DNA of 64,000 nt from an uncultured Bacillota bacterium (GTDB lineage Bacteria > Bacillota_I > Bacilli_A > Culicoidibacterales > ZOR0006): positions 1 to 64,000 of the forward strand of contig CAMFJD010000008.1 of the NCBI GenBank assembly GCA_945956935.1, in the 5' to 3' direction. Numbering within the stretch: position 1 is the stretch's first letter; each line of letters begins with the position of its first letter. Below are positions 9,030-63,215 of the stretch, piece by piece. The notes under the pieces are model-generated. The model saw nothing but the letters and a program-made list of their open reading frames with translations. It did no database searches and had not been told where the DNA came from. The position numbers were made by a program, and so were the translations under genes.

Positions 9030-9425
9030 TTAAGTTTTTGAGCACCAAATATTCATGCAAATGCCACTCTGATACCATTCGCATGTATGACAACAAGCAG
9101 TAAAGGTAGTAATATTCATTTTTTGTTTGAGTTGTTGTATGAGCTGCTGATAATGATATGGTGTATCACATGATAAGTGAAACGCCTGTAACACAGCAAG
9201 ATCAATTGCTAGTACTTTTTGGTCTGTAATACAACGGCGCTGACTATCCAATGATGGACAAGCAGCACAAATTGGATCACTTGCGAGTTTTAAAATTACT
9301 ATTGTATCAGGTTGTTGAAGATTGAATAATACTGTCTGAAAATTTTGAACGAACGCATCTGAATAGCCAAATCCACGAAATGCTTCGGTACATAAGAGGT
9401 GGTGTGGACGTAATGTTATCATCAT
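9030..9425 (-). CDS. DUF1284 domain protein
   Basis: A 131-aa protein with the N-terminal LRPHHLLC signature of DUF1284 and a total of eleven Cys, including CAAC...C and CCHTC...C clusters suggesting a metal or Fe-S centre. No biochemical role is established for the family. ATG 9425 overlaps the bioY stop by 4 nt (ATGA), so it is translationally coupled to the biotin transporter gene. A second Met follows directly, so the start could be 9422. Confidence 0.82.
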   Translation of the reverse strand: MMITLRPHHLLCTEAFRGFGYSDAFVQNFQTVLFNLQQPDTIVILKLASDPICAACPSLDSQRRCITDQKVLAIDLAVLQAFHLSCDTPYHYQQLIQQLKQKMNITTFTACCHTCEWYQSGICMNIWCSKT

Positions 9426-51642: not shown

Positions 51643-52443
51643 ATGAACACAAAATCATATTTAAAACGATATCTTAACGATGTTATTTATTCACAAGCTT
51701 TTTCAGAGGGAATTGCAGCAACATTCCCAGAAACTGAAAGAATATTGGAAGGTAAGAAAGTTGATGGTATTTCTAGTAGTGACTATGAGGTCATCATATC
51801 TCTAAAACGTGCATGGCAATATATTTATGATAATTTAGGTAAAGACTTTTACTATGAAGATATTGCTCTATTAAATGCCATTGTCAGTGATGCTACAAAT
51901 GATCGCCCTGGTCAATTAAGACAAGAAGATGTTTTTGTTCGTGATAAAGATAATAACCGTTGGTATCCTGAATTGCCAAAAGAATATGATGTTAGAGATA
52001 CAATTTTTAAGCTGAATCAAATAAATGATCCACTCGAAAAAGGTTTTGCATTTTTTGCATATTTTACTAGAAGTCAGGTTTTTAATAATTGTAATAAGAG
52101 AACATCGTTTTTACTAGCAAATAAAGTATTTTTAGAAAATGAGTTAGGTATCTTATACCCAACTCCTAATGCAGCTAAAGATCAAGAATATAAAATTGAA
52201 TTAGTTGAATATTATAAATCACAGAATACAGATAAACTATTTAAATTGTTGCTCGAAAATAATTTTCATAATTACAAATTAGATTCGATTCGAAAAGAAA
52301 GTAAGTCCGAAACTGTACCATGCCATATTGTTTTAGAAGTAATTAAATCTTCCACCGAATCAATAAAATCTGATGTATATGACTTTTGTGGTGTAACAAA
52401 AGAAGAAGTACATGGATTAACTAAAGACCACCAAGAACGTTAA
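51643..52443 (+). CDS. Fic-like protein with degenerate active-site motif
   Basis: A 266-aa Fic-fold protein: N-terminal inhibitory-helix-like TFPETERILEGKKV followed by DYEVIISLKRAW, and a core motif at about 150-165 reading SQVFNNCNKRTSFLLAN. Canonical Fic has HxFx(D/E)GN(G/K)RxxR; here His is Gln, the acid is Asn and the first Gly is Cys, while N, K and R are kept. AMPylation by the usual His is therefore unlikely. The C-terminal 80 residues are unassigned. ATG 51643 follows AAAGGAG. Element cargo, possibly a toxin or defence protein with altered chemistry. Confidence 0.7.
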   Translation: MNTKSYLKRYLNDVIYSQAFSEGIAATFPETERILEGKKVDGISSSDYEVIISLKRAWQYIYDNLGKDFYYEDIALLNAIVSDATNDRPGQLRQEDVFVRDKDNNRWYPELPKEYDVRDTIFKLNQINDPLEKGFAFFAYFTRSQVFNNCNKRTSFLLANKVFLENELGILYPTPNAAKDQEYKIELVEYYKSQNTDKLFKLLLENNFHNYKLDSIRKESKSETVPCHIVLEVIKSSTESIKSDVYDFCGVTKEEVHGLTKDHQER

Positions 52444-52466
52444 AAAGAGCCATCAGGCTCTTTTTT
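52442..52466. terminator. Convergent terminator between fic and int
   Basis: 10-bp stem AAAAAGAGCC/GGCTCTTTTT with an ATCA loop; T-rich on both strands. Confidence 0.8.
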
Positions 52467-52467
52467 G

Positions 52468-53604
52468 TTACAGACGATTGAGGAATGATAAAATTTCATC
52501 CTCTTTTTCAGGAAATAAATGCGCATATATTTCTAGTGTAGTTGTGACACTTGCGTGTCCTAGCCGTTGCTGCACCATAAGTGGTTCAGCACCACCATTG
52601 ATGAGTAAACTTGCATGGCTATGCCGCAAATCATGAAAATTGATATTTGGAAGTCCTAGCTTCAATAAAATCCCTTTCTTTTTATAAAGTAAATTTGAAT
52701 ATAAAATAGGATTTATTTTTTCATCTGAGAAAATGAACCATTCATCTGAAAAATTTTTATATACTTGATCAGCTTCTAAATACCGATCGAATATCTCAAT
52801 AACTTGTTTTGGTATAGAAATCATTCTGATTGATGAGCTTGTTTTTGGAGTAGATATACTAGATTCATATTTACCAGTATCTTTATTGATGCCATAAACC
52901 GCATTTTGATAAATGGATATTTTTTTCTTTTGAAAATCAATAGCAGAGTATGTTAAAGCTAATAATTCACTAACACGCATCCCAGTTAAATACAAAACTT
53001 CCAAAATATCTTTTAATAATTGATGTTCTTCAGGAATTTGATCTAGAAATGAATAAATCTGTTTATGCGTGTAACATTTCATTTGATTCGGTTTTTTGAT
53101 TTCAGCATATTTTGGTGGTGAAAATTTATGATGCATTTTAGGAATATCATAATGCTTTTCAGCATACTTAATCATTGCCATAAAGACACTGTGTAACTCT
53201 TTTGCACTTGAAAGCTGTAGTGGCTTATACTTGGAATCTTTAGGCGGATTAAAAAGAGATTCATGTAGTGCAACAATATGAGCATTTGTGAGGTTTTTTA
53301 AAGCAACGTTTCCTATAAAAAATCGCACTCGTCCGTTCAATGATCCAACTATACCTTTGAGTGTATTTGGTTTAACAATTTTTTTCTTATCTTCGATATA
53401 GATATCTATTAAATCACTGATAGTCCAATTCACACTGTTGTAAACACCGTTATTTAATGATCCAATAAATTCATGTTCAGCAGCAAGTGCAGCACGTCTA
53501 GTTTTAAATCCACGTTTCAATTTCTGTTTTTTATTTCCTTGTATATCTGTGTAACGAACACTAAAATACCAATTTTTATTATTACTTTCTTTATATACTG
53601 ACAT
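52468..53604 (-). CDS. int: Tyrosine integrase
   Basis: A 378-aa phage/ICE integrase: N-terminal AP2-like arm-binding domain (NWYFSVRYTDIQGNKKQKLKRGFKTRRAA), core-binding SAM-like domain, and catalytic domain with Arg in LTGMRVSELLAL, HxxR in HDLRHSHASLL and RLGHASVTTTLEIYAHL with the nucleophile Tyr. ATG 53604 follows GGAGAG. It marks the left part of the element inserted next to rpoD. The 54-bp repeat array lies just upstream. Confidence 0.95.
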   Translation of the reverse strand: MSVYKESNNKNWYFSVRYTDIQGNKKQKLKRGFKTRRAALAAEHEFIGSLNNGVYNSVNWTISDLIDIYIEDKKKIVKPNTLKGIVGSLNGRVRFFIGNVALKNLTNAHIVALHESLFNPPKDSKYKPLQLSSAKELHSVFMAMIKYAEKHYDIPKMHHKFSPPKYAEIKKPNQMKCYTHKQIYSFLDQIPEEHQLLKDILEVLYLTGMRVSELLALTYSAIDFQKKKISIYQNAVYGINKDTGKYESSISTPKTSSSIRMISIPKQVIEIFDRYLEADQVYKNFSDEWFIFSDEKINPILYSNLLYKKKGILLKLGLPNINFHDLRHSHASLLINGGAEPLMVQQRLGHASVTTTLEIYAHLFPEKEDEILSFLNRL

Positions 53605-53669
53605 AACTATCTCTCCATTTATGTAAATTTTTTATTGTCAAAAAGACAATTTTAGTGGGTTTTAGTTTT

Positions 53670-53878
53670 GTGGCACAAGAGTGCTACAAAGGGTCTACAA
53701 TGTGGCACAAACTTCATTATTTTGTGCCACAAGAGTGCTACAAAGGGTCTACAATGTGGCACAAACTTCATTATTTTGTGGCACAAGAGTGCTACAAAGG
53801 GTCTACAATGTGGCACAAACTTCATTATTTTGTGCCACAAGAGTGCTACAAAGGGTCTACAATGTGGCACAAACTTCA
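53670..53878. repeat. Four 54-bp tandem repeats
   Basis: Three full units (53670-53723, 53724-53777, 53778-53831) and a 47-bp partial fourth. They are identical except that units 1 and 3 begin GTGGCAC and units 2 and 4 GTGCCAC, so the array arose by doubling of a 108-bp dimer. Each unit ends with GTGGCAC plus an AT-rich stretch, so GTGGCAC/GTGCCAC can form hairpins within or between units. Unit length is a multiple of three, and several frames stay open with an 18-residue periodic sequence, probably meaningless. No spacers, so not CRISPR. The rest of the 53605-54013 gap holds the terminator at 53888-53914. Confidence 0.9.
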
Positions 53879-53887
53879 AGAAATGAC

Positions 53888-53918
53888 AAAAACCACTCGA
53901 ATTGAGTGGTTTTTTATA
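53888..53918. terminator. Bidirectional terminator beside the repeats
   Basis: 11-bp stem AAAAACCACTC/GAGTGGTTTTT (53888-53898/53904-53914); T-rich on both strands. Confidence 0.75.
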
Positions 53919-54013
53919 ATACTATTATATCATGTCGAAATGACAATTTTAAGTCTTTTTGACAAATTCGTGTTGTTCGCTAACTTTTGAAATTAATAAG
54001 AATAAATTGGATT

Positions 54014-54286
54014 CTAGTTGTCAAAAGTAGCTATCTGCGCTTGTAATTCTAAAATTTCTGAATGCTGCTCTTGAATAATTTTTTTATATGATTCTATTTG
54101 TGTTTCATATTCCAGTTCATAATCAGCACGTTGTTCATCAAGTGAATGTAGTTGATCTTGTACTACTGATAGCCTATTTTTACCATTGATAAGCTGATCA
54201 TTTAGTAGAGTAATCTCTTTTTTATTTTTGTTTTTTCCTAAGATGTAGGCAATGCCAGCAACACTTAAAATAATTATGAAATTCAT
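54014..54286 (-). CDS. Membrane-anchored coiled-coil protein
   Basis: A 90-aa protein with an N-terminal hydrophobic helix (residues 2-18, FIIILSVAGIAYILG), a Lys-rich turn and a long coiled coil (about 25-85). The topology fits a small membrane-tethered scaffold, such as phage or conjugation accessory proteins. Start ATG 54286 follows AAGGAGTAA. No family recognised. Confidence 0.65.
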   Translation of the reverse strand: MNFIIILSVAGIAYILGKNKNKKEITLLNDQLINGKNRLSVVQDQLHSLDEQRADYELEYETQIESYKKIIQEQHSEILELQAQIATFDN

Positions 54287-54314
54287 AGATTTACTCCTTA
54301 TTCTATATTTGTGG

Positions 54315-54527
54315 AAAAGTATCGTTAGCCTAGTAATTTAGGGGGTGCATTTTTTACACCCCTGATTTTATGGGACAAATGCATAAAAAGTATCGTTAGC
54401 CTAGTAATTTAAGGGGTGCATTTTTTACACCCCTGATTTTATGGGAGTGCATTTTTTGCACCCCCTATTTTACTGATGTAACAACTATGAAAGCAGTAAT
54501 TTAGGGAGTGCATTTTTTGCACCCCTT
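54315..54527. repeat. Two 61-bp direct repeats and four related hairpins
   Basis: Copies at 54315-54375 and 54386-54446 differ by one base. Each contains a GGGGTGCATTTTTTACACCCC-like hairpin, and two more hairpins of the form GGAGTGC-ATTTTTT-GCACCCC follow at about 54443-54466 and 54503-54525. The first stem is 6-7 bp with T-rich loop. They lie between the repressor and coiled-coil genes (gap 54287-54592). They could act as transcription attenuators or protein-binding iterons. Confidence 0.8.
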
Positions 54528-54544
54528 ATATACTATATAAAGAA

Positions 54545-54564
54545 TATACTTATTTATAAGTATA
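54545..54564. promoter_or_regulatory. 20-bp palindrome downstream of the repressor gene
   Basis: TATACTTAT-TT-ATAAGTATA is perfectly symmetrical and followed by another ACTTATACTT. Possible operator for one of the element's regulators. Confidence 0.35.
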
Positions 54565-54592
54565 CTTATACTTCTCAAGGGAGAGAGGAAAT

Positions 54593-55201
54593 CTAAAATT
54601 CATCGCTACAAGACCATATCAATTTACCTAAAATCTCAATATTCTGTTTTTTCAAATCAATAATTTCAGAGTTATATTCATCAGAATAGCTATCTGGTTT
54701 TAAGACAACCGTTTCATCATCTAAACGATAAAACCGTTTTAACGTAGCATCTTGATGATCAACCAAAATAACAGCTATTTCACCATTCTCAACTGTGCTT
54801 TGTTTTTTGATGATGGCTATTGCTTTATCATGTAGCACTTTAGACATAGAATCACCATGTACTCGTAAAGCAAATAAATCAGAACCGTATTTCATAAAGA
54901 TTGGAGCAGGAATATACACTTCACCTTCAAATGAGGATATAGCCATGATAGGTGTACCCGCAGGAATTTTACCAATGATCGGCAATGAGTCATTTGAAAT
55001 GCCTAAAATAAAATCACTAGATACACCGAAAATTTTTGATAAATTCGAAATAACTTCCGTTGGTGGAGAAGCGTAACCTGTTTCATAGTTACTTATAGAT
55101 TGTTTAGAAAGGCGTAATTGATTAGCCAATTCTTGCTGGGTCATTTTATTTTTTTGTCTAAGATATTTTATTTTTTCTGAAATAATATTTTCAGAAACCA
55201 T
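54593..55201 (-). CDS. CI/LexA-type repressor (XRE HTH plus S24 peptidase)
   Basis: A 202-aa repressor: N-terminal XRE helix-turn-helix (MTQQELANQLRLSKQSISNYETG) and a C-terminal S24 self-cleavage domain with Ala-Gly cleavage-site-like IPAGTP, catalytic Ser in VHGDSMSK and Lys in DATLKRFY. It would keep the element quiet and be cleaved on RecA activation in the SOS response. Start ATG 55201 follows GAGGGTGA. Divergent from the Cro-like gene. Confidence 0.93.
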   Translation of the reverse strand: MVSENIISEKIKYLRQKNKMTQQELANQLRLSKQSISNYETGYASPPTEVISNLSKIFGVSSDFILGISNDSLPIIGKIPAGTPIMAISSFEGEVYIPAPIFMKYGSDLFALRVHGDSMSKVLHDKAIAIIKKQSTVENGEIAVILVDHQDATLKRFYRLDDETVVLKPDSYSDEYNSEIIDLKKQNIEILGKLIWSCSDEF

Positions 55202-55267
55202 GAATATCACCCTCTCTTATTTACGAATAAATAAAGTATACAACCAAGAAGCGCACTTTTTTAATGA

Positions 55268-55321
55268 GTACAAAATAAATGTACAATTTCATTGGACAAT
55301 GACTTTTTGGTATGATATAAT
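55268..55321 (+). promoter_or_regulatory. Operator and promoter of the Cro-like gene
   Basis: 17-bp dyad GTACA-AAATAAA-TGTAC (55268-55284) upstream of TTGGAC (55292-55297), 18-bp spacer, TATAAT (55316-55321). ATTGGACAAT and ATTGGACTAT repeats flank the -10. It is the expected CI/Cro switch region. Confidence 0.6.
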
Positions 55322-55370
55322 TGGACTATAGAGCTTTTAAAAAACAATTTAGTTGTATTGGAGTGTGTTT

Positions 55371-55577
55371 ATGAGAATGGAATTGAAACAAGCAAGACAA
55401 GCAAAAGGCTTAACACAAAAAGAGTTAGCTGACAAAATAGGTACTAGCAAATCTGTTATTAGTAATTATGAAACAGGATATGCTACACCAAAATTAGACC
55501 GAATGATTAAACTTTCTGAAATCTTAGACGTAGATATATCAATATTTTTAAAAAAAGATGTAGTTGATAATACCTGA
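55371..55577 (+). CDS. Cro-like XRE-family regulator
   Basis: A 68-aa helix-turn-helix protein (LKQARQAKGLTQKELADKIGTSKSVISNYETG) consisting of little more than the XRE domain, like phage Cro. Its HTH shares SNYETGYATP-type wording with the CI repressor, so they probably bind related operators. ATG 55371 lies 6 nt after GGAG. It starts the rightward operon of the element. Confidence 0.88.
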   Translation: MRMELKQARQAKGLTQKELADKIGTSKSVISNYETGYATPKLDRMIKLSEILDVDISIFLKKDVVDNT

Positions 55578-55717
55578 ACGGAGAAAACAAAGAAAGCACC
55601 ACCAAAACGAAGTAATAGTTGCAACTCAAAAGAGGTTCATTGCAATTTTAAGTGATTTGACTGGTGCACAACGTGATTTTCCGACAACATTCCACGATAC
55701 AGAAAACGGTGATACAC

Positions 55718-56749
55718 ATGATGAATAACTTGAGATTAGACCGGAAACCAACGTTTGTTGCAATTCCAGTTGAAATAATTGATACGCAAGTACTTAATCC
55801 GATGGAAAAAGTACTCTATCTGACCTTATATCGGATAGCTGAACAAAATCAAAACTTCCCAACTACTAGCAAATTAATGGAAACATTACATGTGAAATCA
55901 AAACATACTGTTTTAAAGCACATAAAAAGTTTACAAGAAAAACAACTATTAGTTGTTGAGCCAGTATTTAACGAGTTAGGAATGCAAGAAGCAAATTCAT
56001 ATACGCTGAATACTCAAAATTTATTTTTTGACAATTCATTGATACATAAAGAGATTGCAAAGCAATTTCAAGCGATTGTCGGTGAATTAGACGTATCTGA
56101 ATTAGAATTATTATCTTTAACATCTAAAGCCTACGAAATTCATGCGGAAAACGCTGTTAGAGAGCTTGTAGTTAAATTCTTTACACTGAATCATGAAGAG
56201 CAAGAAAAACCGTTAGAGGGGCTTTTAAAACGTTTAGAAGATGATGTTGTGATGGTGCTAGAACAAACAGAAGCTGAAAAGCAATTTTTAAATACATTTG
56301 TTGATCCAAGCTCAAAAGATAAAGCAACGTTTAATCGACTCATTAAGCAATACCCTGAAGGTGTTGTTCAATATGCACTTGAGAGTGTAAAAGGAAAAGA
56401 TGCACAGCAAAATTGGGCATATATTACAGCTACAATCAAACGTCTATCTGAAACTTGCGTAACGTATGAAGAATGTATCGAACATAAGAAAGCATATTTT
56501 GCTAAGCAAGATGCACTTAACGAAGAAAAGAAAAAAGAGCAACTAAAAAAACAAAAATTAGTTACTCGTTTGATTAATTTGGGTACATTTGGTGAGGTTC
56601 AAAATATTGCTGCATACACTAAAAAAGTACTTGCTGATGAAAATTACAAAAATTTAGATGCTTGTGAATTATTCGACTTGCTGACAGGTCAAAATCATTT
56701 GTGGGCTTCAGATTATGATAAACAAGTATTTGATATTTTATATGCGTAG
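55718..56749 (+). CDS. Replication initiator/DnaD-like helix-turn-helix protein
   Basis: A 343-aa protein. N-terminal winged helix (MEKVLYLTLYRIAEQNQNFPTT and a recognition helix at HTVLKHIKSLQEKQLL) as in RepA-N and phage replisome organisers, a helical middle, a DnaD-like segment (FNRLIKQYPEGVVQYALESVKG) and a basic coiled coil. It likely starts or loads replication of the excised element. Start is one of two ATGs at 55718/55721 with only GGTGA upstream. The 55578-55717 gap has an ATG-less open frame only. Confidence 0.75.
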   Translation: MMNNLRLDRKPTFVAIPVEIIDTQVLNPMEKVLYLTLYRIAEQNQNFPTTSKLMETLHVKSKHTVLKHIKSLQEKQLLVVEPVFNELGMQEANSYTLNTQNLFFDNSLIHKEIAKQFQAIVGELDVSELELLSLTSKAYEIHAENAVRELVVKFFTLNHEEQEKPLEGLLKRLEDDVVMVLEQTEAEKQFLNTFVDPSSKDKATFNRLIKQYPEGVVQYALESVKGKDAQQNWAYITATIKRLSETCVTYEECIEHKKAYFAKQDALNEEKKKEQLKKQKLVTRLINLGTFGEVQNIAAYTKKVLADENYKNLDACELFDLLTGQNHLWASDYDKQVFDILYA

Positions 56750-56766
56750 AAGGAGGTGGCAAATAG

Positions 56767-56949
56767 ATGGTAATTACAGAAAATAAGTGTATGTGTAACG
56801 GTGGTTGTGGTCATGAATTTCATGATGGGGAAGATTTTTTTCGATTAATTACTGGTTCTGGAGATGTTTATCTTTGTAGTGATGATTGCATTGTATCTTA
56901 TTTGGATATGACTGGTTATTTAGAAAGAGAGAAGGTGGAAAGAGTATGA
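56767..56949 (+). CDS. Small Cys-rich (zinc-binding) protein
   Basis: A 60-aa protein with CMCNGGCGHEF near its start and LCSDDC at about residue 37, a treble-clef-like zinc pattern. ATG 56767 follows AAGGAGG. It overlaps the next gene by 4 nt. Unknown role in the element's early operon. Confidence 0.75.
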   Translation: MVITENKCMCNGGCGHEFHDGEDFFRLITGSGDVYLCSDDCIVSYLDMTGYLEREKVERV

Positions 56950-57299
56950 TTGTAGAATTTGAAAACGCTGAAAATAAAAGTGTTAAATTAGATTTGGAAA
57001 CACTCGTTGGTAAAGGTGTAAGGGTGGTGTCATTAACAGCTATCGTTAATTTAGAAAATTATATTGACGATTATGCTGAACCATATTTAATTCGCAAGAA
57101 TAGAAGTCACAAGGGTAAAATTTTACTAAGCGATTATTCCTATCGCTTATATATGAGCGATAATGTTGTAACAGCGATTAATCTAGAAAATCAATCTGTT
57201 GAAATTCATAACACTTACTGCGGATATGATTATGATTTAGGCTTTGAATTTATTTGGATAGCTCCTGATGGAGAGTGTGCATTTGAAGTAGAAAAATAG
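56946..57299 (+). CDS. Hypothetical protein of the element
   Basis: A 117-aa mainly beta protein without recognisable motifs, rich in acidic residues and Tyr. ATG 56946 overlaps the upstream stop (ATGA) and follows GAGAAGGTGG. Co-translated with its neighbour. Confidence 0.65.
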   Translation: MIVEFENAENKSVKLDLETLVGKGVRVVSLTAIVNLENYIDDYAEPYLIRKNRSHKGKILLSDYSYRLYMSDNVVTAINLENQSVEIHNTYCGYDYDLGFEFIWIAPDGECAFEVEK

Positions 57300-57310
57300 G
57301 GGGTAAAAAT

Positions 57311-57481
57311 ATGAAAGTACAAAAAAAAGATGTTGAAACAGGTCAAGTAATTGCAGAGTATCGTAATTTAGAAGAAGCAGCTATTGCAAATTTCATGAAA
57401 ATTGGGGAATTACTTGAACATTTGCATGGATGGTTAGATCATCAAGATGAATTTTATTTTGAATATGTAAAACAGGGATGA
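57311..57481 (+). CDS. Small hypothetical protein (56 aa)
   Basis: Starts with ATG 57311 after AGGGGGTAA, ends at TGA 57479-57481. The sequence opens MKVQKKDVETGQVIAEY and has a helical, acidic C-terminus. Good ribosome site and tight packing with both neighbours support a real gene. No family recognised. Confidence 0.6.
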   Translation: MKVQKKDVETGQVIAEYRNLEEAAIANFMKIGELLEHLHGWLDHQDEFYFEYVKQG

Positions 57482-57486
57482 TTTCA

Positions 57487-57759
57487 ATGACGAAAACACA
57501 ATTTTTAAAAGGGATTGAATTATTACATTTGAAATTTTCAGTATTTGACAAAAAAACCATGACAACATGGCATTTCACCAAGCAAGAAATACAATCATTG
57601 TATTCAGAAATTTCAAATATGAATTACAAACAATATATGACAGTATGTATTCAATGCAGTAAAGCTACAGATCCACCAAAAATAGAAACAATAAAAGAGC
57701 AACTTGGGGTTAAGGATGCAACAATAGGACAACTTGATTTATTTACAATCGAAACATAG
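57487..57759 (+). CDS. Hypothetical protein of the element
   Basis: A 90-aa protein with no recognised domain; the last third contains a CIQC pair and ends QLDLFTIET. I chose ATG 57487, 6 nt after AGGGATGA; an in-frame ATG at 57478 overlaps the upstream stop and cannot be excluded. Confidence 0.6.
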   Translation: MTKTQFLKGIELLHLKFSVFDKKTMTTWHFTKQEIQSLYSEISNMNYKQYMTVCIQCSKATDPPKIETIKEQLGVKDATIGQLDLFTIET

Positions 57760-57791
57760 ACAAATAAAAACACACTAAAGGAGAATTTATT

Positions 57792-58736
57792 ATGATTTAC
57801 GCAATTGATTTAGGAAACGGATTTTCAAAAAGAACATTTGGAGCAGAAACTTTCATTGATCCAACCGTATATGCTTTTCCAAACACATTCTTTGGAGATG
57901 GAGATAAATTAGCAATCAGTATTAACAATCAACAAGCTTTCTTATTAGGAAATGATGCGGTGAATAGTGGGCAACCATTACAGTATGTTTTAGGTGATTC
58001 GAACATAAAAAGATATGAATCTGATGCTTATAAACAACTTGTATTAGCTTTCATTGCGAAGGATTTAAAAGATAATATCACAATTGAAAAGCTTGTATTA
58101 GGACTTCCAATTGACCATTTCAAAGCTAAAAAAGATGCACTCGTTAAATCGTTTGCGAAAACAAAAAATTTAGCAATGTGCAATGGAGAATCGTACTTAA
58201 TTGATATCAAGGAAGTAATGGTTGTTCCCCAACCAATGGGAACATATATCCATACTTTAAACTCACAAAAACAAGAAGTAACATTGATTGTCGATGCAGG
58301 ATATGGAACAGTTGATGTTGCTGAACTCACAGGTTTAAATTCAGTGCGCAATTTTGGTGCGGATATTGGCTTGAAACAAGCATTTATCGAGATTAATTCT
58401 TACCTCAAAGAAACGTATGCAGATTGCCATATCAGTGTTGGAACAGTACACGATGCGCTCTTGAATGGATTGAAGTATAAAGGTGCATATATTGATATTT
58501 TCGAAGATGAATTTATTCAACAAGCGCTGAAAAATCACTTTGATAGACTGTATGCAATGTTAGTTGAAAATTATGGTTCATTTACAAAATTTGATAAAGT
58601 CATTTTCACTGGCGGAACAGCGGAAATGCATAAAAAACACATTGAAGCAAAAGAAGAACCAAATTTTATCATTGTAAAAAACCCACAAACAGCCAACGTG
58701 GAAGGATTTTACACTTTTGGTAAAACAATGAAGTAA
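57792..58736 (+). CDS. parM: ParM/StbA-family actin-like ATPase
   Basis: A 314-aa actin-like protein of the ParM/StbA type. Phosphate 1 loop AIDLGNGFSK (residues 4-13), phosphate 2 VDAGYGTVDV (about 165-174) and adenosine motif FTGGTAEMH (about 277-285) are all there. It polymerises to push DNA copies apart, suggesting the element has a plasmid-like phase. No adjacent ParR; the small DNA-binding candidate is at 59760. ATG 57792 follows AAAGGAGAA. Confidence 0.88.
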   Translation: MIYAIDLGNGFSKRTFGAETFIDPTVYAFPNTFFGDGDKLAISINNQQAFLLGNDAVNSGQPLQYVLGDSNIKRYESDAYKQLVLAFIAKDLKDNITIEKLVLGLPIDHFKAKKDALVKSFAKTKNLAMCNGESYLIDIKEVMVVPQPMGTYIHTLNSQKQEVTLIVDAGYGTVDVAELTGLNSVRNFGADIGLKQAFIEINSYLKETYADCHISVGTVHDALLNGLKYKGAYIDIFEDEFIQQALKNHFDRLYAMLVENYGSFTKFDKVIFTGGTAEMHKKHIEAKEEPNFIIVKNPQTANVEGFYTFGKTMK

Positions 58737-60119: not shown

Positions 60120-61183
60120 TAGAGTTTTTAAAGTCATTTGCAGATTGGCTTGTAGAATATGAACCGATTATGCTTAATGGATCAGTTCAAAATTCCATTT
60201 ACAAGCACATAGATGCTGAAAAATACAGATTAAATGCATTCTTAGACATGATTTTTTTAGAAAAAAAGGGATATTCAGTTACAGAAATTGTCTTTTTTCT
60301 CTCATTTGGTCGTGAATCCATTGAATATATATCAAAATGGATGCCTAGCAAGTATCGAAAAACGATATTGAAATACTTAGCAACAAATAATCTTGAAGTG
60401 GCTAGAAGCTTCATGATTCAAAATATGGATACAATTATGACAATTCGAGTATCGACAGCAAAAGGAAAACATACGCTACAAACAAGTCTAGGTGCAATTA
60501 TCGTAACATTACTAGATAATATTTTGTCACAAGATGGTGAATATGCATTTGAACATATTTATCAGCTAGCAGACATATATACAGAACGTTTTGAAGCTCT
60601 GGAAGCGCTTAATACGCTACACGAATTATCTTTACAAGATCAAGAAGTTATCAAGTTTCTGTTAATTGTATCATCTGATTTCCTGAATTTAAGAGTACAC
60701 GATGTATTTCCAATTGGGTTAATTGAAGAGGCTATCTATATGGCTTACGGAGAAGAAAATCAATTTTATTTGTGGATTAAACACTGTCGTGAAATGCAAA
60801 GTAAGATAGATACTTTGGAAGAGCAATTGCAAGAAGCAAATATGAAAATCATGATTCTTGAAAAAAACACCTTCGCACATGAAGAAAATAAAAAGATTAT
60901 TTATGTTGGTAATAGTGCAAGAAAAAATGATATAGCAAAAGAAGTATCAGTATATACGCATGATTACACTATATTAGATGGGTTTGATGATATTAATCGA
61001 ATCATTCCACAAGGGCGAAATGCTGATGTAATTATTGTTGACACACAATATATTGCACACTCTGTCTATCATCTTTTGATGAATAATTACAAATCAAAAT
61101 TGGTGTTGCTGAATAGATCAGGAATGCTGACTTTAAAAACAACATTACAAGGAATGTGTAAGGGGGAAAATAAATGGATATAA
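60116..61183 (+). CDS. DUF2325-like protein
   Basis: A 355-aa protein: helical N-terminal 240 residues, a coiled coil (about 225-260), and a C-terminal Rossmann-like domain (IIYVGNSARKNDIA ... ADVIIVDTQYIAHSVYHLL ... LVLLNRSGMLTL) that resembles DUF2325. ATG 60116 overlaps the upstream stop. The last 50 codons are duplicated in degenerate form at 61523-61580. Function unknown. Confidence 0.65.
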   Translation: MIEFLKSFADWLVEYEPIMLNGSVQNSIYKHIDAEKYRLNAFLDMIFLEKKGYSVTEIVFFLSFGRESIEYISKWMPSKYRKTILKYLATNNLEVARSFMIQNMDTIMTIRVSTAKGKHTLQTSLGAIIVTLLDNILSQDGEYAFEHIYQLADIYTERFEALEALNTLHELSLQDQEVIKFLLIVSSDFLNLRVHDVFPIGLIEEAIYMAYGEENQFYLWIKHCREMQSKIDTLEEQLQEANMKIMILEKNTFAHEENKKIIYVGNSARKNDIAKEVSVYTHDYTILDGFDDINRIIPQGRNADVIIVDTQYIAHSVYHLLMNNYKSKLVLLNRSGMLTLKTTLQGMCKGENKWI

Positions 61184-61542
61184 AAAAAGTAAAAGAAGGA
61201 GAGCGACTGTTGTTTGTAGGTAGATTTGATGGGATTTATTTTAAACATTCAAAACCCAAACAAGGTATTTTACTACACACACAGTTAAATAAAGTCGAAA
61301 AATATAAATTTAAAAAAATAAAATGTTTAGAAAATAATTTATCTTTTAAAGAGATGGATTTTAACTATGGTAAACAAATTCAATTATTAAAGCCAATAAA
61401 AGGACAACATATAGTTTTCTTTGCGAGAATAGCAAGAAAAAAAGGAAAATATATTTTACAAAACCCAACGAAAATGAAACGTGTAACAATACAAGAGCTA
61501 GATGACTTAATGGCAAGTAGACGAATAGATCAGGAATGTTGA
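61174..61542 (+). CDS. Hypothetical basic protein of the element
   Basis: A 122-aa Lys-rich protein without recognised motif. ATG 61174 follows AGGGGGAAAA within the end of the previous gene (10-nt overlap). Its last residues (RRIDQEC) are read out of phase through the degenerate copy of the DUF2325 gene end, so its natural C-terminus may have been changed by that duplication. Confidence 0.6.
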   Translation: MDIKKVKEGERLLFVGRFDGIYFKHSKPKQGILLHTQLNKVEKYKFKKIKCLENNLSFKEMDFNYGKQIQLLKPIKGQHIVFFARIARKKGKYILQNPTKMKRVTIQELDDLMASRRIDQEC

Positions 61543-61580
61543 CATTGAAAACTACTTTAAAAGGAATGTATGCGGGGTGA
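61523..61580 (+). pseudogene. Degenerate duplicate of the DUF2325 gene end
   Basis: About 57 bp matching 61111-61168 with about a dozen differences. One frame reads NRSGMLTLKTTLKGMYAG then stop, against NRSGMLTLKTTLQGMCKG in the intact gene. A fragment left by duplication or replacement. Confidence 0.65.
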
Positions 61581-61584
61581 AAGA

Positions 61585-61737
61585 ATGAATAAGTATTATG
61601 CAGTAAAAAAAGGTCGTAAAGAAAATGTTATTGTACGATCATGGGGTGAGTGCAAGAAATTAGTGCATAAATATCCAAGTGCAAAATATAAAAGCTTCTT
61701 AACAAGAGAAGCAGCAAAAAAATATTTACAACATTAA
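61585..61737 (+). CDS. Stand-alone RNase H1 N-terminal (viroplasmin-like) domain
   Basis: A 50-aa protein matching the hybrid-binding/caulimovirus viroplasmin domain: YYAVKKGR, SWGECKKLVHKYPSAKYKSF, then TREAAKKYL. In RNase H1 this domain grips RNA-DNA hybrids or dsRNA; here there is no nuclease domain, so the gene encodes only the binder. ATG 61585 follows GGGGTGAAA; the TAA is 9 nt before the structured guide RNA. By inference it could stabilise R-loops formed by the neighbouring CRISPR effector. Confidence 0.8.
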   Translation: MNKYYAVKKGRKENVIVRSWGECKKLVHKYPSAKYKSFLTREAAKKYLQH

Positions 61738-61745
61738 TTAAAATC

Positions 61746-61835
61746 TTCAGGAGGTTTAGCCCTGAAAAGCTCGTGTAAACTTGTATCTAAAAGATATAAA
61801 TGAGCGAGAAACTATGTATTTGAGATAGGAAAATC
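61746..61835 (+). ncRNA. tracrRNA-like RNA ending in an anti-repeat
   Basis: Stem 1 TTCAGG/CCTGAA (61746-61751/61761-61766); stem 2 GCTCGT/ATGAGC (61769-61774/61800-61805) containing a hairpin TATCT-AAA-AGATA (61784-61796). Then 61811-61835 can pair with the CRISPR repeat in 23 of 25 positions (blocks of 6, 5, 7 and 5 bp). The anti-repeat lies only 8 nt before repeat 1, so read-through RNA can fold as a cis single-guide with spacer 1 at its 3' end. Confidence 0.7.
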
Positions 61836-61843
61836 AAATAAAG

Positions 61844-61999
61844 GATGTAGTCCTATCAGAAATAACATAGTACTAAAACATCGTGATTTCAATCTTCGTT
61901 CGTGCTTCTGATTTAGTCCTATCAGAAATAACATAGTACTAAAACACATCGAGCAAAAAGCTTCAAATCCAAAATGATTTAGTCCTATCAGAAATAACA
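61844..61999 (+). CRISPR. Mini CRISPR array: two spacers
   Basis: 36-nt repeats at 61844-61879 and 61910-61945 (one mismatch, at the fourth base), 30-nt spacers at 61880-61909 and 61946-61975, and a third repeat truncated after 24 nt (61976-61999). The repeat ends in ACTAAAAC. The degenerate final repeat and the adjoining anti-repeat indicate plus-strand transcription. No cas1/cas2 nearby. The reverse complement resembles Cas9-type repeats, an alternative reading. I found no match of either spacer elsewhere in this window by eye. Confidence 0.85.
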
Positions 62000-62018: not shown

Positions 62019-63215
62019 ATGGGAAAAATAATAATAAATAAAGGATATAAATTTAGAATATATCCCAATAAAGAGCAAGAAATACTTATTCAAAAAACTT
62101 TCGGTTGTTGTCGATTTGTATTCAATTACACATTAGCTACACATAAAAGATTGGAAGATACAATATGGGAAATAACTCAAGGATTAGTTGAAAATGGAAC
62201 TTTAGAAAAAAATACATATAAGTCTAAATTTTTTAATAAGTTTTCAGCCACTAAAGCATTACCAGAGTTGAAATCGAATCATGAATTTCTTAAGGAAGTT
62301 GATTCAAATGCGTTGATTGCTGAAATAGGGAATTTAGAAAAAGCTTACAAAAAATATTATCAAAAATCGAAAAGTAATCATAAAGTTGGAAAACCAAAAT
62401 TCAAACACAAAGAAAGTTCGAAAAAATATTCTACAAATCCACCTTCAAAATATGCAAAACCCACGATTAATAATGGTAAATATATCTGGGAAACACATAT
62501 TGTTTCATATGAAAATTCGCAAATAAAAATAAATAAATTAGGTTGGGTAAAAGCAAAGTTACACATGAAAATGGAGTGTATACGCATTTATGGAATGACG
62601 ATTAGCCAAAGTGCAACAGGAGAATATTACTGTTCATTGAAAACAGAAGAGGAAATAAGTGAACAAAAAAAAGGTGAATCTTCAGTAGGTATTGTTTTAG
62701 CTGACAATCCAATAATAGGACTTTCAAATGGATCAGTATTCGAGAATCCTAATGAATTTACTCAATTGGAACAAAAAATTAAAAAAGAACAAAAGATATT
62801 ATCACGCATGATGCCTGATTCAAATAGATACAATAAACAAAAATTAAAGGTAGCAAAACTTCACGAAAAAATAAGAAGAAAACGTGAATATAATTTGCAC
62901 TGTCTATCTAAAAAAATTGTAAATGAATATGATGAAATGGCGTTAGTGACGGTTAAAGGAATAGGTACTGCCAATATAAATACGCTTGGATTATACGCAT
63001 TATCGGAAATGATTCGGTATAAAGCAGAGTGGCAAAATAAGTTGTGTGAAAAATCCACTATTTCAAATGAACATATTCAAACATGTTCAGAATGTGGTGT
63101 AATCAACGCAGGGAAGATAAGTACTGATTATTGGAAATGTTCATCATGTGAACAGCAACATAAGACAATAGTAAATATTGCCAAAAATATACATAATGTA
63201 AAGAGGGAAGGTTGA
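62019..63215 (+). CDS. Nuclease-dead TnpB/Cas12-like RNA-guided protein
   Basis: A 398-aa TnpB/Cas12f-type protein. The family N-terminus (YKFRIYPNKEQEILIQKTFGCCRFVFNY) and WED/REC body precede a RuvC domain whose acidic residues are all lost: RuvC-I GIDLG reads GIVLA (about residue 227), the RuvC-II glutamate position reads LVTVKG, and HDRD of RuvC-III reads HKTI. The zinc ribbon TCSECG...CSSCEQQH is intact, as is full length. It should bind guide RNA and DNA but not cut, as in TldR repressors and Cas12m. It begins 19 nt after the CRISPR array. ATG 62019 follows GAGGAAA. Confidence 0.88.
   Translation: MGKIIINKGYKFRIYPNKEQEILIQKTFGCCRFVFNYTLATHKRLEDTIWEITQGLVENGTLEKNTYKSKFFNKFSATKALPELKSNHEFLKEVDSNALIAEIGNLEKAYKKYYQKSKSNHKVGKPKFKHKESSKKYSTNPPSKYAKPTINNGKYIWETHIVSYENSQIKINKLGWVKAKLHMKMECIRIYGMTISQSATGEYYCSLKTEEEISEQKKGESSVGIVLADNPIIGLSNGSVFENPNEFTQLEQKIKKEQKILSRMMPDSNRYNKQKLKVAKLHEKIRRKREYNLHCLSKKIVNEYDEMALVTVKGIGTANINTLGLYALSEMIRYKAEWQNKLCEKSTISNEHIQTCSECGVINAGKISTDYWKCSSCEQQHKTIVNIAKNIHNVKREG

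What the first reader, a model, noticed from the sequence alone, without database searches (positions are those of the whole stretch)
61811..61909. Anti-repeat 8 nt before repeat 1: a genetically encoded single-guide RNA
61811-61835 pairs in 23 of 25 nt with repeat 61844-61879 and the loop is AAATAAAG. The order structured RNA, anti-repeat, repeat, spacer is the type V-F guide layout, but joined in cis, so spacer 1 would be part of one RNA while spacer 2 would need trans tracrRNA.
Basis: seen in the sequence. Interest (0 to 1): 0.85.

Follow-up and report, generated by a model that had tools for sequence, protein, structure and literature searches.

The report
Dead TnpB with unsplit guide array
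A mobile element carries a nuclease-dead relative of the transposon protein TnpB whose only nearby guide RNA is a self-folding single guide that has grown into a two-spacer CRISPR-like array, which looks like a halfway stage between a transposon guide RNA and a CRISPR system.

Summary
The hairpin is real. 61811-61835 pairs with the repeat 61844-61879 across the 8-nt loop AAATAAAG: 21 base pairs by MFE, not 23 of 25; z = -6.3, 0 of 200 shuffles as stable. It heads a 2.6-copy array (36-nt repeats, 30-nt spacers, period 66) ending 20 nt before a 398-aa ORF. That ORF is not a Cas12f. It is a TnpB (top PDB hit ISDra2 TnpB) with all three RuvC catalytic residues replaced (D226V, E310V, D384I), an intact predicted fold and no room for a guide RNA downstream. 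On the + strand the RNA has the order of a TnpB omega-RNA: stem 1, internal hairpin, long terminal hairpin, 8-nt handle, guide. The stem-1 loop (GGUUUAG) can pair with the guide-adjacent CUAAAAC, as in the ISDra2 pseudoknot. A viral TnpB locus (L150) independently shows the same layout. Best reading: an unsplit TnpB-type single guide whose 3' arm plus guide was multiplied into a mini-array for an RNA-guided DNA binder/repressor. Unexplained: read on the other strand, the repeats resemble those of the host's own II-A array (25/36) with the identical 36+30 unit. A minus-strand Cas9 guide is disfavoured, not excluded. No protospacers were found; covariation could not be tested.

The parts
61746..61766 (+). 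Hairpin 1 ('stem 1'); its loop 61753-61759 GGUUUAG can pair with the guide-adjacent CUAAAAC (61873-61879)
   Evidence: loop-handle match 6/7, shuffled loops reach it in 2.1% (whole upstream region: 27%)
61769..61806 (+). Internal hairpin of the scaffold
   Evidence: + strand 61738-61843: z -3.12
61811..61835 (+). Anti-repeat (5' arm of the long terminal hairpin)
61836..61843 (+). Loop AAATAAAG joining anti-repeat and repeat 1
61844..61879 (+). Repeat 1; the last 8 nt ACUAAAAC are the unpaired guide-adjacent handle
61880..61909 (+). Spacer 1 (30 nt)
   Evidence: no database match
61910..61945 (+). Repeat 2
61946..61975 (+). Spacer 2 (30 nt)
   Evidence: no database match
61976..61999 (+). Truncated repeat 3: keeps the anti-repeat-pairing part, lacks the 3' handle
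62019..63215 (+). Nuclease-dead TnpB (398 aa); RuvC D/E/D replaced by V226, V310, I384; zinc-ribbon cysteines kept
61744..61768 (-). Terminator-like hairpin if the minus strand is transcribed (rival reading); same DNA as hairpin 1

Best explanation
The + strand encodes an omega-RNA-like single guide RNA for the downstream nuclease-dead TnpB. Stem 1, an internal hairpin and the long anti-repeat/repeat hairpin form the scaffold, and an 8-nt handle precedes a 30-nt spacer. The 3' arm of the terminal hairpin plus guide has been multiplied into a two-spacer array in the 5' leader of the effector mRNA. The protein loads guide 1 from the cis-folded RNA, and can use guide 2 when the anti-repeat pairs with repeat 2, possibly after RNase III cuts the duplex. 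It then binds DNA next to a TAM without cutting and blocks transcription or replication of a rival element or host gene. Shown here: the hairpin, the array, loss of all three catalytic residues in an otherwise intact predicted fold, absence of any guide-RNA space downstream, and the omega-RNA-like order of elements. Inferred: transcription of the + strand, the pseudoknot, RNA loading, repression, and use of both spacers.
For: Hairpin z -6.26. RuvC D, E and D replaced while nearly all of about 84 retrieved relatives keep them. AF2 pLDDT 86.9; Foldseek top four hits are all TnpB, then Cas12f and Fanzor. The next ORF starts at or just after the stop codon, leaving no downstream guide RNA, whereas active relatives have theirs at the 3' end with the order terminal hairpin, short handle, guide, the guide boundary being visible from diverging copies. 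The ISDra2 omega-RNA pseudoknot joins the stem-1 loop to nt -6 to -2 of the scaffold, and that RNA is called a natural sgRNA (PMC10097598); the window has GGUUUAG in the hairpin-1 loop facing CUAAAAC at -7 to -1. L150, a viral TnpB with intact RuvC, has the same order upstream of its gene: GGUAC in the first hairpin, internal hairpin, anti-repeat/repeat hairpin, handle with GUACC, four repeats. The surrounding genes from 55664 to the contig end run on the + strand.
Against: Read on the minus strand, the repeat resembles the host II-A repeat (25/36; 0 of 20,000 shuffles) with the identical 36+30 unit, which a TnpB-derived repeat would not predict. A terminator-like hairpin points to the minus strand. 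The pseudoknot match is short (p 0.02 for the loop, 0.27 for the whole region). No close relative, so no covariation. No protospacer, so no TAM. No RNA data.
Confidence: 0.64

Rival explanations
1. The minus strand is used: a type II-A mini-array with its own tracrRNA, reading spacer, repeat (GUUUUAG...), loop, anti-repeat, tail, terminator. It would be a naturally encoded sgRNA that lets the element borrow the host Cas9 against rivals, or for regulation as tracr-L does.
For: The host has a complete II-A locus with 45 repeats. The repeat is 25/36 identical in II-A orientation with the same 66-nt period. A terminator-like hairpin lies at the right end. MGE mini-arrays that use host CRISPR machinery are known (PMC11656645).
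Against: In the minus fold the first 8 nt of the repeat (GUUUUAGU), the Cas9 lower stem, are unpaired, whereas the host duplex includes them. The element repeat does not pair with the host tracrRNA above chance (-14.6 against -13.0 +/- 2.5 for shuffles; own host pair -46.3). By eye the tail shows no host-like nexus or GC-rich hairpins. Known viral mini-arrays carry repeats identical to the host's (PMC11656645), and this one does not. The leader-side repeat is truncated and runs into the effector gene, and no neighbouring gene of the operon is on this strand.
Confidence: 0.15
2. RNA-based anti-CRISPR: transcripts of the array mimic repeat or anti-repeat and sequester the host crRNA or Cas9.
For: The + strand repeat pairs with the host crRNA repeat better than shuffles (-20.3 against -10.1 +/- 2.8). 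Repeat mimics (Racrs) occur across MGEs and most CRISPR types (PMC10651486).
Against: The pairing is far weaker than that of the host tracrRNA (-46.3). Racrs are solitary repeats, not arrays with two distinct 30-nt spacers. It does not explain the scaffold or the adjacent dead TnpB.
Confidence: 0.07
3. Inert relic: a dead tnpB next to a decaying array, kept by chance.
For: Truncated third repeat, only two spacers, all catalytic residues lost, no close relatives.
Against: Full-length ORF with a high-confidence predicted fold, zinc ribbon and N-terminal motif kept; near-identical repeats; a strongly non-random RNA fold.
Confidence: 0.14

Closest known systems
TnpB omega-RNA (ISDra2 and relatives; PMC10097598)
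   Same: Protein family; order of stem 1, inner stems, terminal hairpin, handle, 3' guide; stem-1 loop to handle pseudoknot (suggestive here); one continuous 'natural sgRNA'
   Different: RuvC dead; guide RNA upstream of the gene instead of at its 3' end; repeat-spacer units multiplied into an array; 30-nt spacers
TldR, nuclease-dead TnpB repressors (PMC13418256)
   Same: Same kind of catalytic loss; found on mobile elements; a csrA-linked TldR has an RNase III-split dual guide from an expanded stem-loop, called a potential intermediate of crRNA-tracrRNA systems
   Different: TldR guides lie downstream and hold one guide; no array seen in the passages read; partner genes such as fliC or csrA were not found in the part of the element read
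TranC / LaTranC, transposon-CRISPR intermediates (Jin et al. 2025, title known only from a reference list; PDB 9jfo)
   Same: TnpB-like effector combined with CRISPR-type RNA (recalled); detectable sequence relation
   Different: Paper not held and details recalled only; the window protein is much closer to ISDra2 TnpB and is catalytically dead
Cas12m (type V-M)
   Same: RuvC unable to cut, binding without cutting, enriched on mobile elements (PMC11013384 and PMC10442227 abstracts; PMC11656645)
   Different: The window protein is 398 aa and TnpB-like, with an anti-repeat-containing scaffold; sequence relation to Cas12m only at profile level
tracr-L / Cas9 natural single guide
   Same: A naturally encoded single guide; the minus strand would have this layout
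   Different: Lower stem unpaired, tail without resemblance by eye to the host tracrRNA

Membership tests
Type V-F (Cas12f) | Effector belongs to Cas12f rather than TnpB | tested here: not met
   Best PDB sequence and fold matches are ISDra2 TnpB; NCBIfam TnpB models score best. PADLOC's best model is a Cas12f one, but those models also match ordinary TnpB such as L150, and more strongly.
Type V-F (Cas12f) | CRISPR array with tracrRNA-like anti-repeat on the strand placing the guide 3' of the repeat | tested here: met
   (+ strand)
Type V-F (Cas12f) | Active RuvC nuclease | tested here: not met
TldR (nuclease-dead TnpB) | TnpB homologue with RuvC catalytic residues lost | tested here: met
TldR (nuclease-dead TnpB) | Single guide RNA downstream of the gene | tested here: not met
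   Next ORF abuts the stop codon; the guide candidate is upstream
TldR (nuclease-dead TnpB) | RNA-guided repression of a defined target | not testable with these tools
   No convincing target found
TnpB omega-RNA | Stem-1 loop to guide-adjacent handle pseudoknot | tested here: inconclusive
   6/7 match in the right loop, p 0.02 (loop) or 0.27 (region); analogous GGUAC:GUACC in L150 (region shuffles 0.12)
Type II-A array using host Cas9 | Repeat pairs with the host tracrRNA | tested here: not met
   -14.6 against -13.0 +/- 2.5 for shuffles
Type II-A array using host Cas9 | Own tracrRNA with paired lower stem (GUUUU) | tested here: not met
   First 8 nt of the repeat unpaired in the minus-strand fold
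Type II-A array using host Cas9 | Repeat of II-A type with 36+30 unit | tested here: met
RNA anti-CRISPR (Racr) | Solitary repeat mimicking the host repeat | tested here: not met
   2.6 repeats with two spacers, 69% identical to the host repeat

The most novel reading that the evidence does not exclude
A TnpB-type single guide has been given repeats that mimic the resident II-A array, so that the host's Cas1-Cas2-Csn2 can insert new 30-bp spacers in trans. A nuclease-dead TnpB on a mobile element thereby becomes an adaptive RNA-guided repressor: an unsplit omega-RNA caught turning into a CRISPR array by borrowing another system's adaptation machinery.
Probability: 0.22. Interest if true: 0.88.

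Novelty: new variant of a known kind. Interest (0 to 1): 0.7.

Why it matters
How a one-guide transposon RNA became a multi-guide CRISPR array with separate tracrRNA is an open question. The proposed route is that an omega-RNA was split and its crRNA part later expanded into an array (PMC10097598). This locus has the array but not the split, next to a nuclease-dead protein, which suggests that expansion can come before splitting. The identical repeat and spacer lengths of the host's II-A array also make borrowing of a foreign adaptation module directly testable.

Tried and rejected
(1) Minus-strand Cas9 guide: tested by fold, lower stem and host-tracrRNA duplex; disfavoured. (2) Protospacers: exact 18-mers of both spacers in viral contigs, BLAST in phages and plasmids, back-translated spacer peptides, own and order-level genomes with mismatches. 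Nothing above chance; the best self hit (contig C20, 21/30) has two mismatches in the first 16 nt. (3) Host spacers against the element: no match above shuffled controls. (4) Other copies of the repeat: none elsewhere in the own genome, in 391 further genomes, in viral contigs, phages or plasmids. (5) Closer dead relatives or covariation: relatives found only at about 22-38% overall identity. (6) Same locus in the sister genome: it carries 97-98% identical element segments, but the matching assembly stops at window 58012. (7) L196's array downstream of a TnpB is judged an unrelated type I-like array. (8) Conservation counts for the N-terminal motif are biased, because relatives were fetched by matching peptides of the query.

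Full report
Observation. The hairpin exists as described. 61811-61835 folds back on repeat 61844-61879 through AAATAAAG with 21 base pairs. The segment 61738-61879 folds at -39.3 kcal/mol, z -6.26, with no shuffle reaching it. The array has two full 36-nt repeats, a truncated third, and two 30-nt spacers, period 66. The complementary strand forms the same helix (z -4.57), so the fold alone is strand-blind.

Effector. The ORF 62019-63215 begins 20 nt after the truncated repeat. Its closest solved relative is ISDra2 TnpB by sequence (E 3e-33) and by fold (on a model with mean pLDDT 86.9). All three RuvC catalytic residues are replaced: D226V, E310V, D384I. The retrieved relatives keep them in 95-99% of cases, and the lid region after motif II is shortened. 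The four zinc-ribbon cysteines are kept. This is the pattern of nuclease-dead TnpB repressors (TldR, PMC13418256). It is not a Cas12f by the tests run. Because relatives were fetched by peptides of the query, conservation of the N-terminal motif is partly an artefact of retrieval.

Where is its guide RNA? Active relatives carry the omega-RNA across the 3' end of the gene. Copies in Sporosarcina (L035, L037, L097) are near-identical up to GGTTCAAC and then diverge, which marks the guide boundary; the scaffold ends with a long terminal hairpin and a short handle. The window gene has no such region: the next ORF starts at or just after its stop codon. The only guide-like RNA nearby is upstream.

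Architecture. On the + strand the order is hairpin 1 (61746-61766), internal hairpin (61769-61806), anti-repeat/repeat hairpin (61811-61871), handle ACUAAAAC (61872-61879), spacer. The ISDra2 structure shows that nt -6 to -2 of the omega-RNA pair with the loop of stem 1, and its authors call the omega-RNA a natural sgRNA (PMC10097598). The window has GGUUUAG in the loop of hairpin 1 and CUAAAAC at -7 to -1: six of seven pair. Shuffled loops do this in 2.1% of trials, shuffles of the whole region in 27%, so this is supportive but not proof.

A second case. Of 185 loci with a TnpB relative screened for period-repeat arrays, one viral contig (L150, TnpB with intact RuvC) has four repeats directly upstream of the gene, an anti-repeat just before repeat 1, GGUAC in the first hairpin and GUACC in the handle. 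Its scaffold sequence differs, yet the order and both long-range pairings recur. Its repeat shares GAAA-TA-CATAGTAC with the window (p about 0.013, same strand only). L150 also appears to keep a conventional omega-RNA-like sequence downstream, so its TnpB need not depend on the array.

The awkward fact. Read on the minus strand the window repeat is GTTTTAGTACTATGTTATTTCTGATAGGACTAAATC. The same genome has a complete type II-A locus on contig C10 (cas9, cas1, cas2, csn2, 45 repeats, tracrRNA) with repeat GTTTTGGCGTTATGTTATTGTCGATAGTTCTCAAGC, 25/36 identical (0 of 20,000 shuffles) and with the identical 36+30 unit. On the minus strand the locus reads spacer, repeat, anti-repeat, tail, which is a Cas9 sgRNA layout. 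Against it: the lower stem GUUUUAG is unpaired in the cis fold, the repeat does not pair with the host tracrRNA above chance, the leader-side repeat is truncated, the tail shows no resemblance by eye to the host tracrRNA, and the operon runs on the other strand. I therefore put the Cas9 reading at 0.15. The shared 30-nt spacer length is better explained if host Cas1-Cas2-Csn2 made or enlarged the array. That is an inference and is offered as the novel case.

Mechanism proposed. One transcript from upstream runs through scaffold, array and effector gene. The cis hairpin with repeat 1 is favoured (0.89 in the ensemble), so guide 1 is loaded as a natural single guide. Repeat 2 has the same pairing segment and could be served when repeat 1 is cut away or by another transcript. 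The truncated third repeat lacks the handle, so it would not make a false guide out of the mRNA leader. The dead TnpB would bind DNA and block transcription, as TldR and Cas12m do. Targets are unknown: no protospacer was found.

Context. The locus sits in an integrated, probably conjugative element with a tyrosine integrase, an S24-type repressor, an actin-like ParM partition protein, a RadC-like protein and a weak T4SS-pilin match. A sister genome of the same genus carries 97-98% identical segments of the element but has no dead-TnpB match.

Verdict. The finding is real and the + strand single-guide reading is the best supported, but the label type V-F is not. It is a new variant of a known kind: a nuclease-dead TnpB with an unsplit guide and a two-spacer array. 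[quoted passage not shown] The unsplit guide, the dead nuclease and the II-A-like unit together raise it.

Noticed in passing
L116 (G000 contig C10) 89-9270: Complete type II-A CRISPR-Cas locus of the host: cas9 (1337 aa), cas1, cas2, csn2, 45 repeats with 30-nt spacers, and a tracrRNA-like sequence at about 9173-9270; none of 14 host spacers tried had a BLAST match in the phage collection.
   Followed up: partly
L150 5290-6920: Viral TnpB with intact RuvC, a four-repeat array plus anti-repeat directly upstream, and an omega-RNA-like sequence downstream: a second locus with this layout, possibly able to use both RNAs.
   Followed up: partly
L196 7060-7700: TnpB relative with a 30-nt-repeat, type I-like CRISPR array shortly downstream on a viral contig.
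   Followed up: no
window 61111-61173 and 61523-61585: 63-nt direct repeat (81%) spanning the 3' ends of two neighbouring ORFs, a sign of a past duplication within the element.
   Followed up: no
window 61585-61734: 50-aa stand-alone RNase H1 N-terminal (Cauli_VI) domain immediately upstream of the guide-RNA region.
   Followed up: no
window 53655-53990: Tandem repeats beside the integrase gene, also present in the sister genome (L234).
   Followed up: no
window 52433-58012: Integrated mobile element shared in part with the sister genome G001 at about 78-98% identity; the matching G001 contig ends at window position 58012, so the array region cannot be compared.
   Followed up: partly
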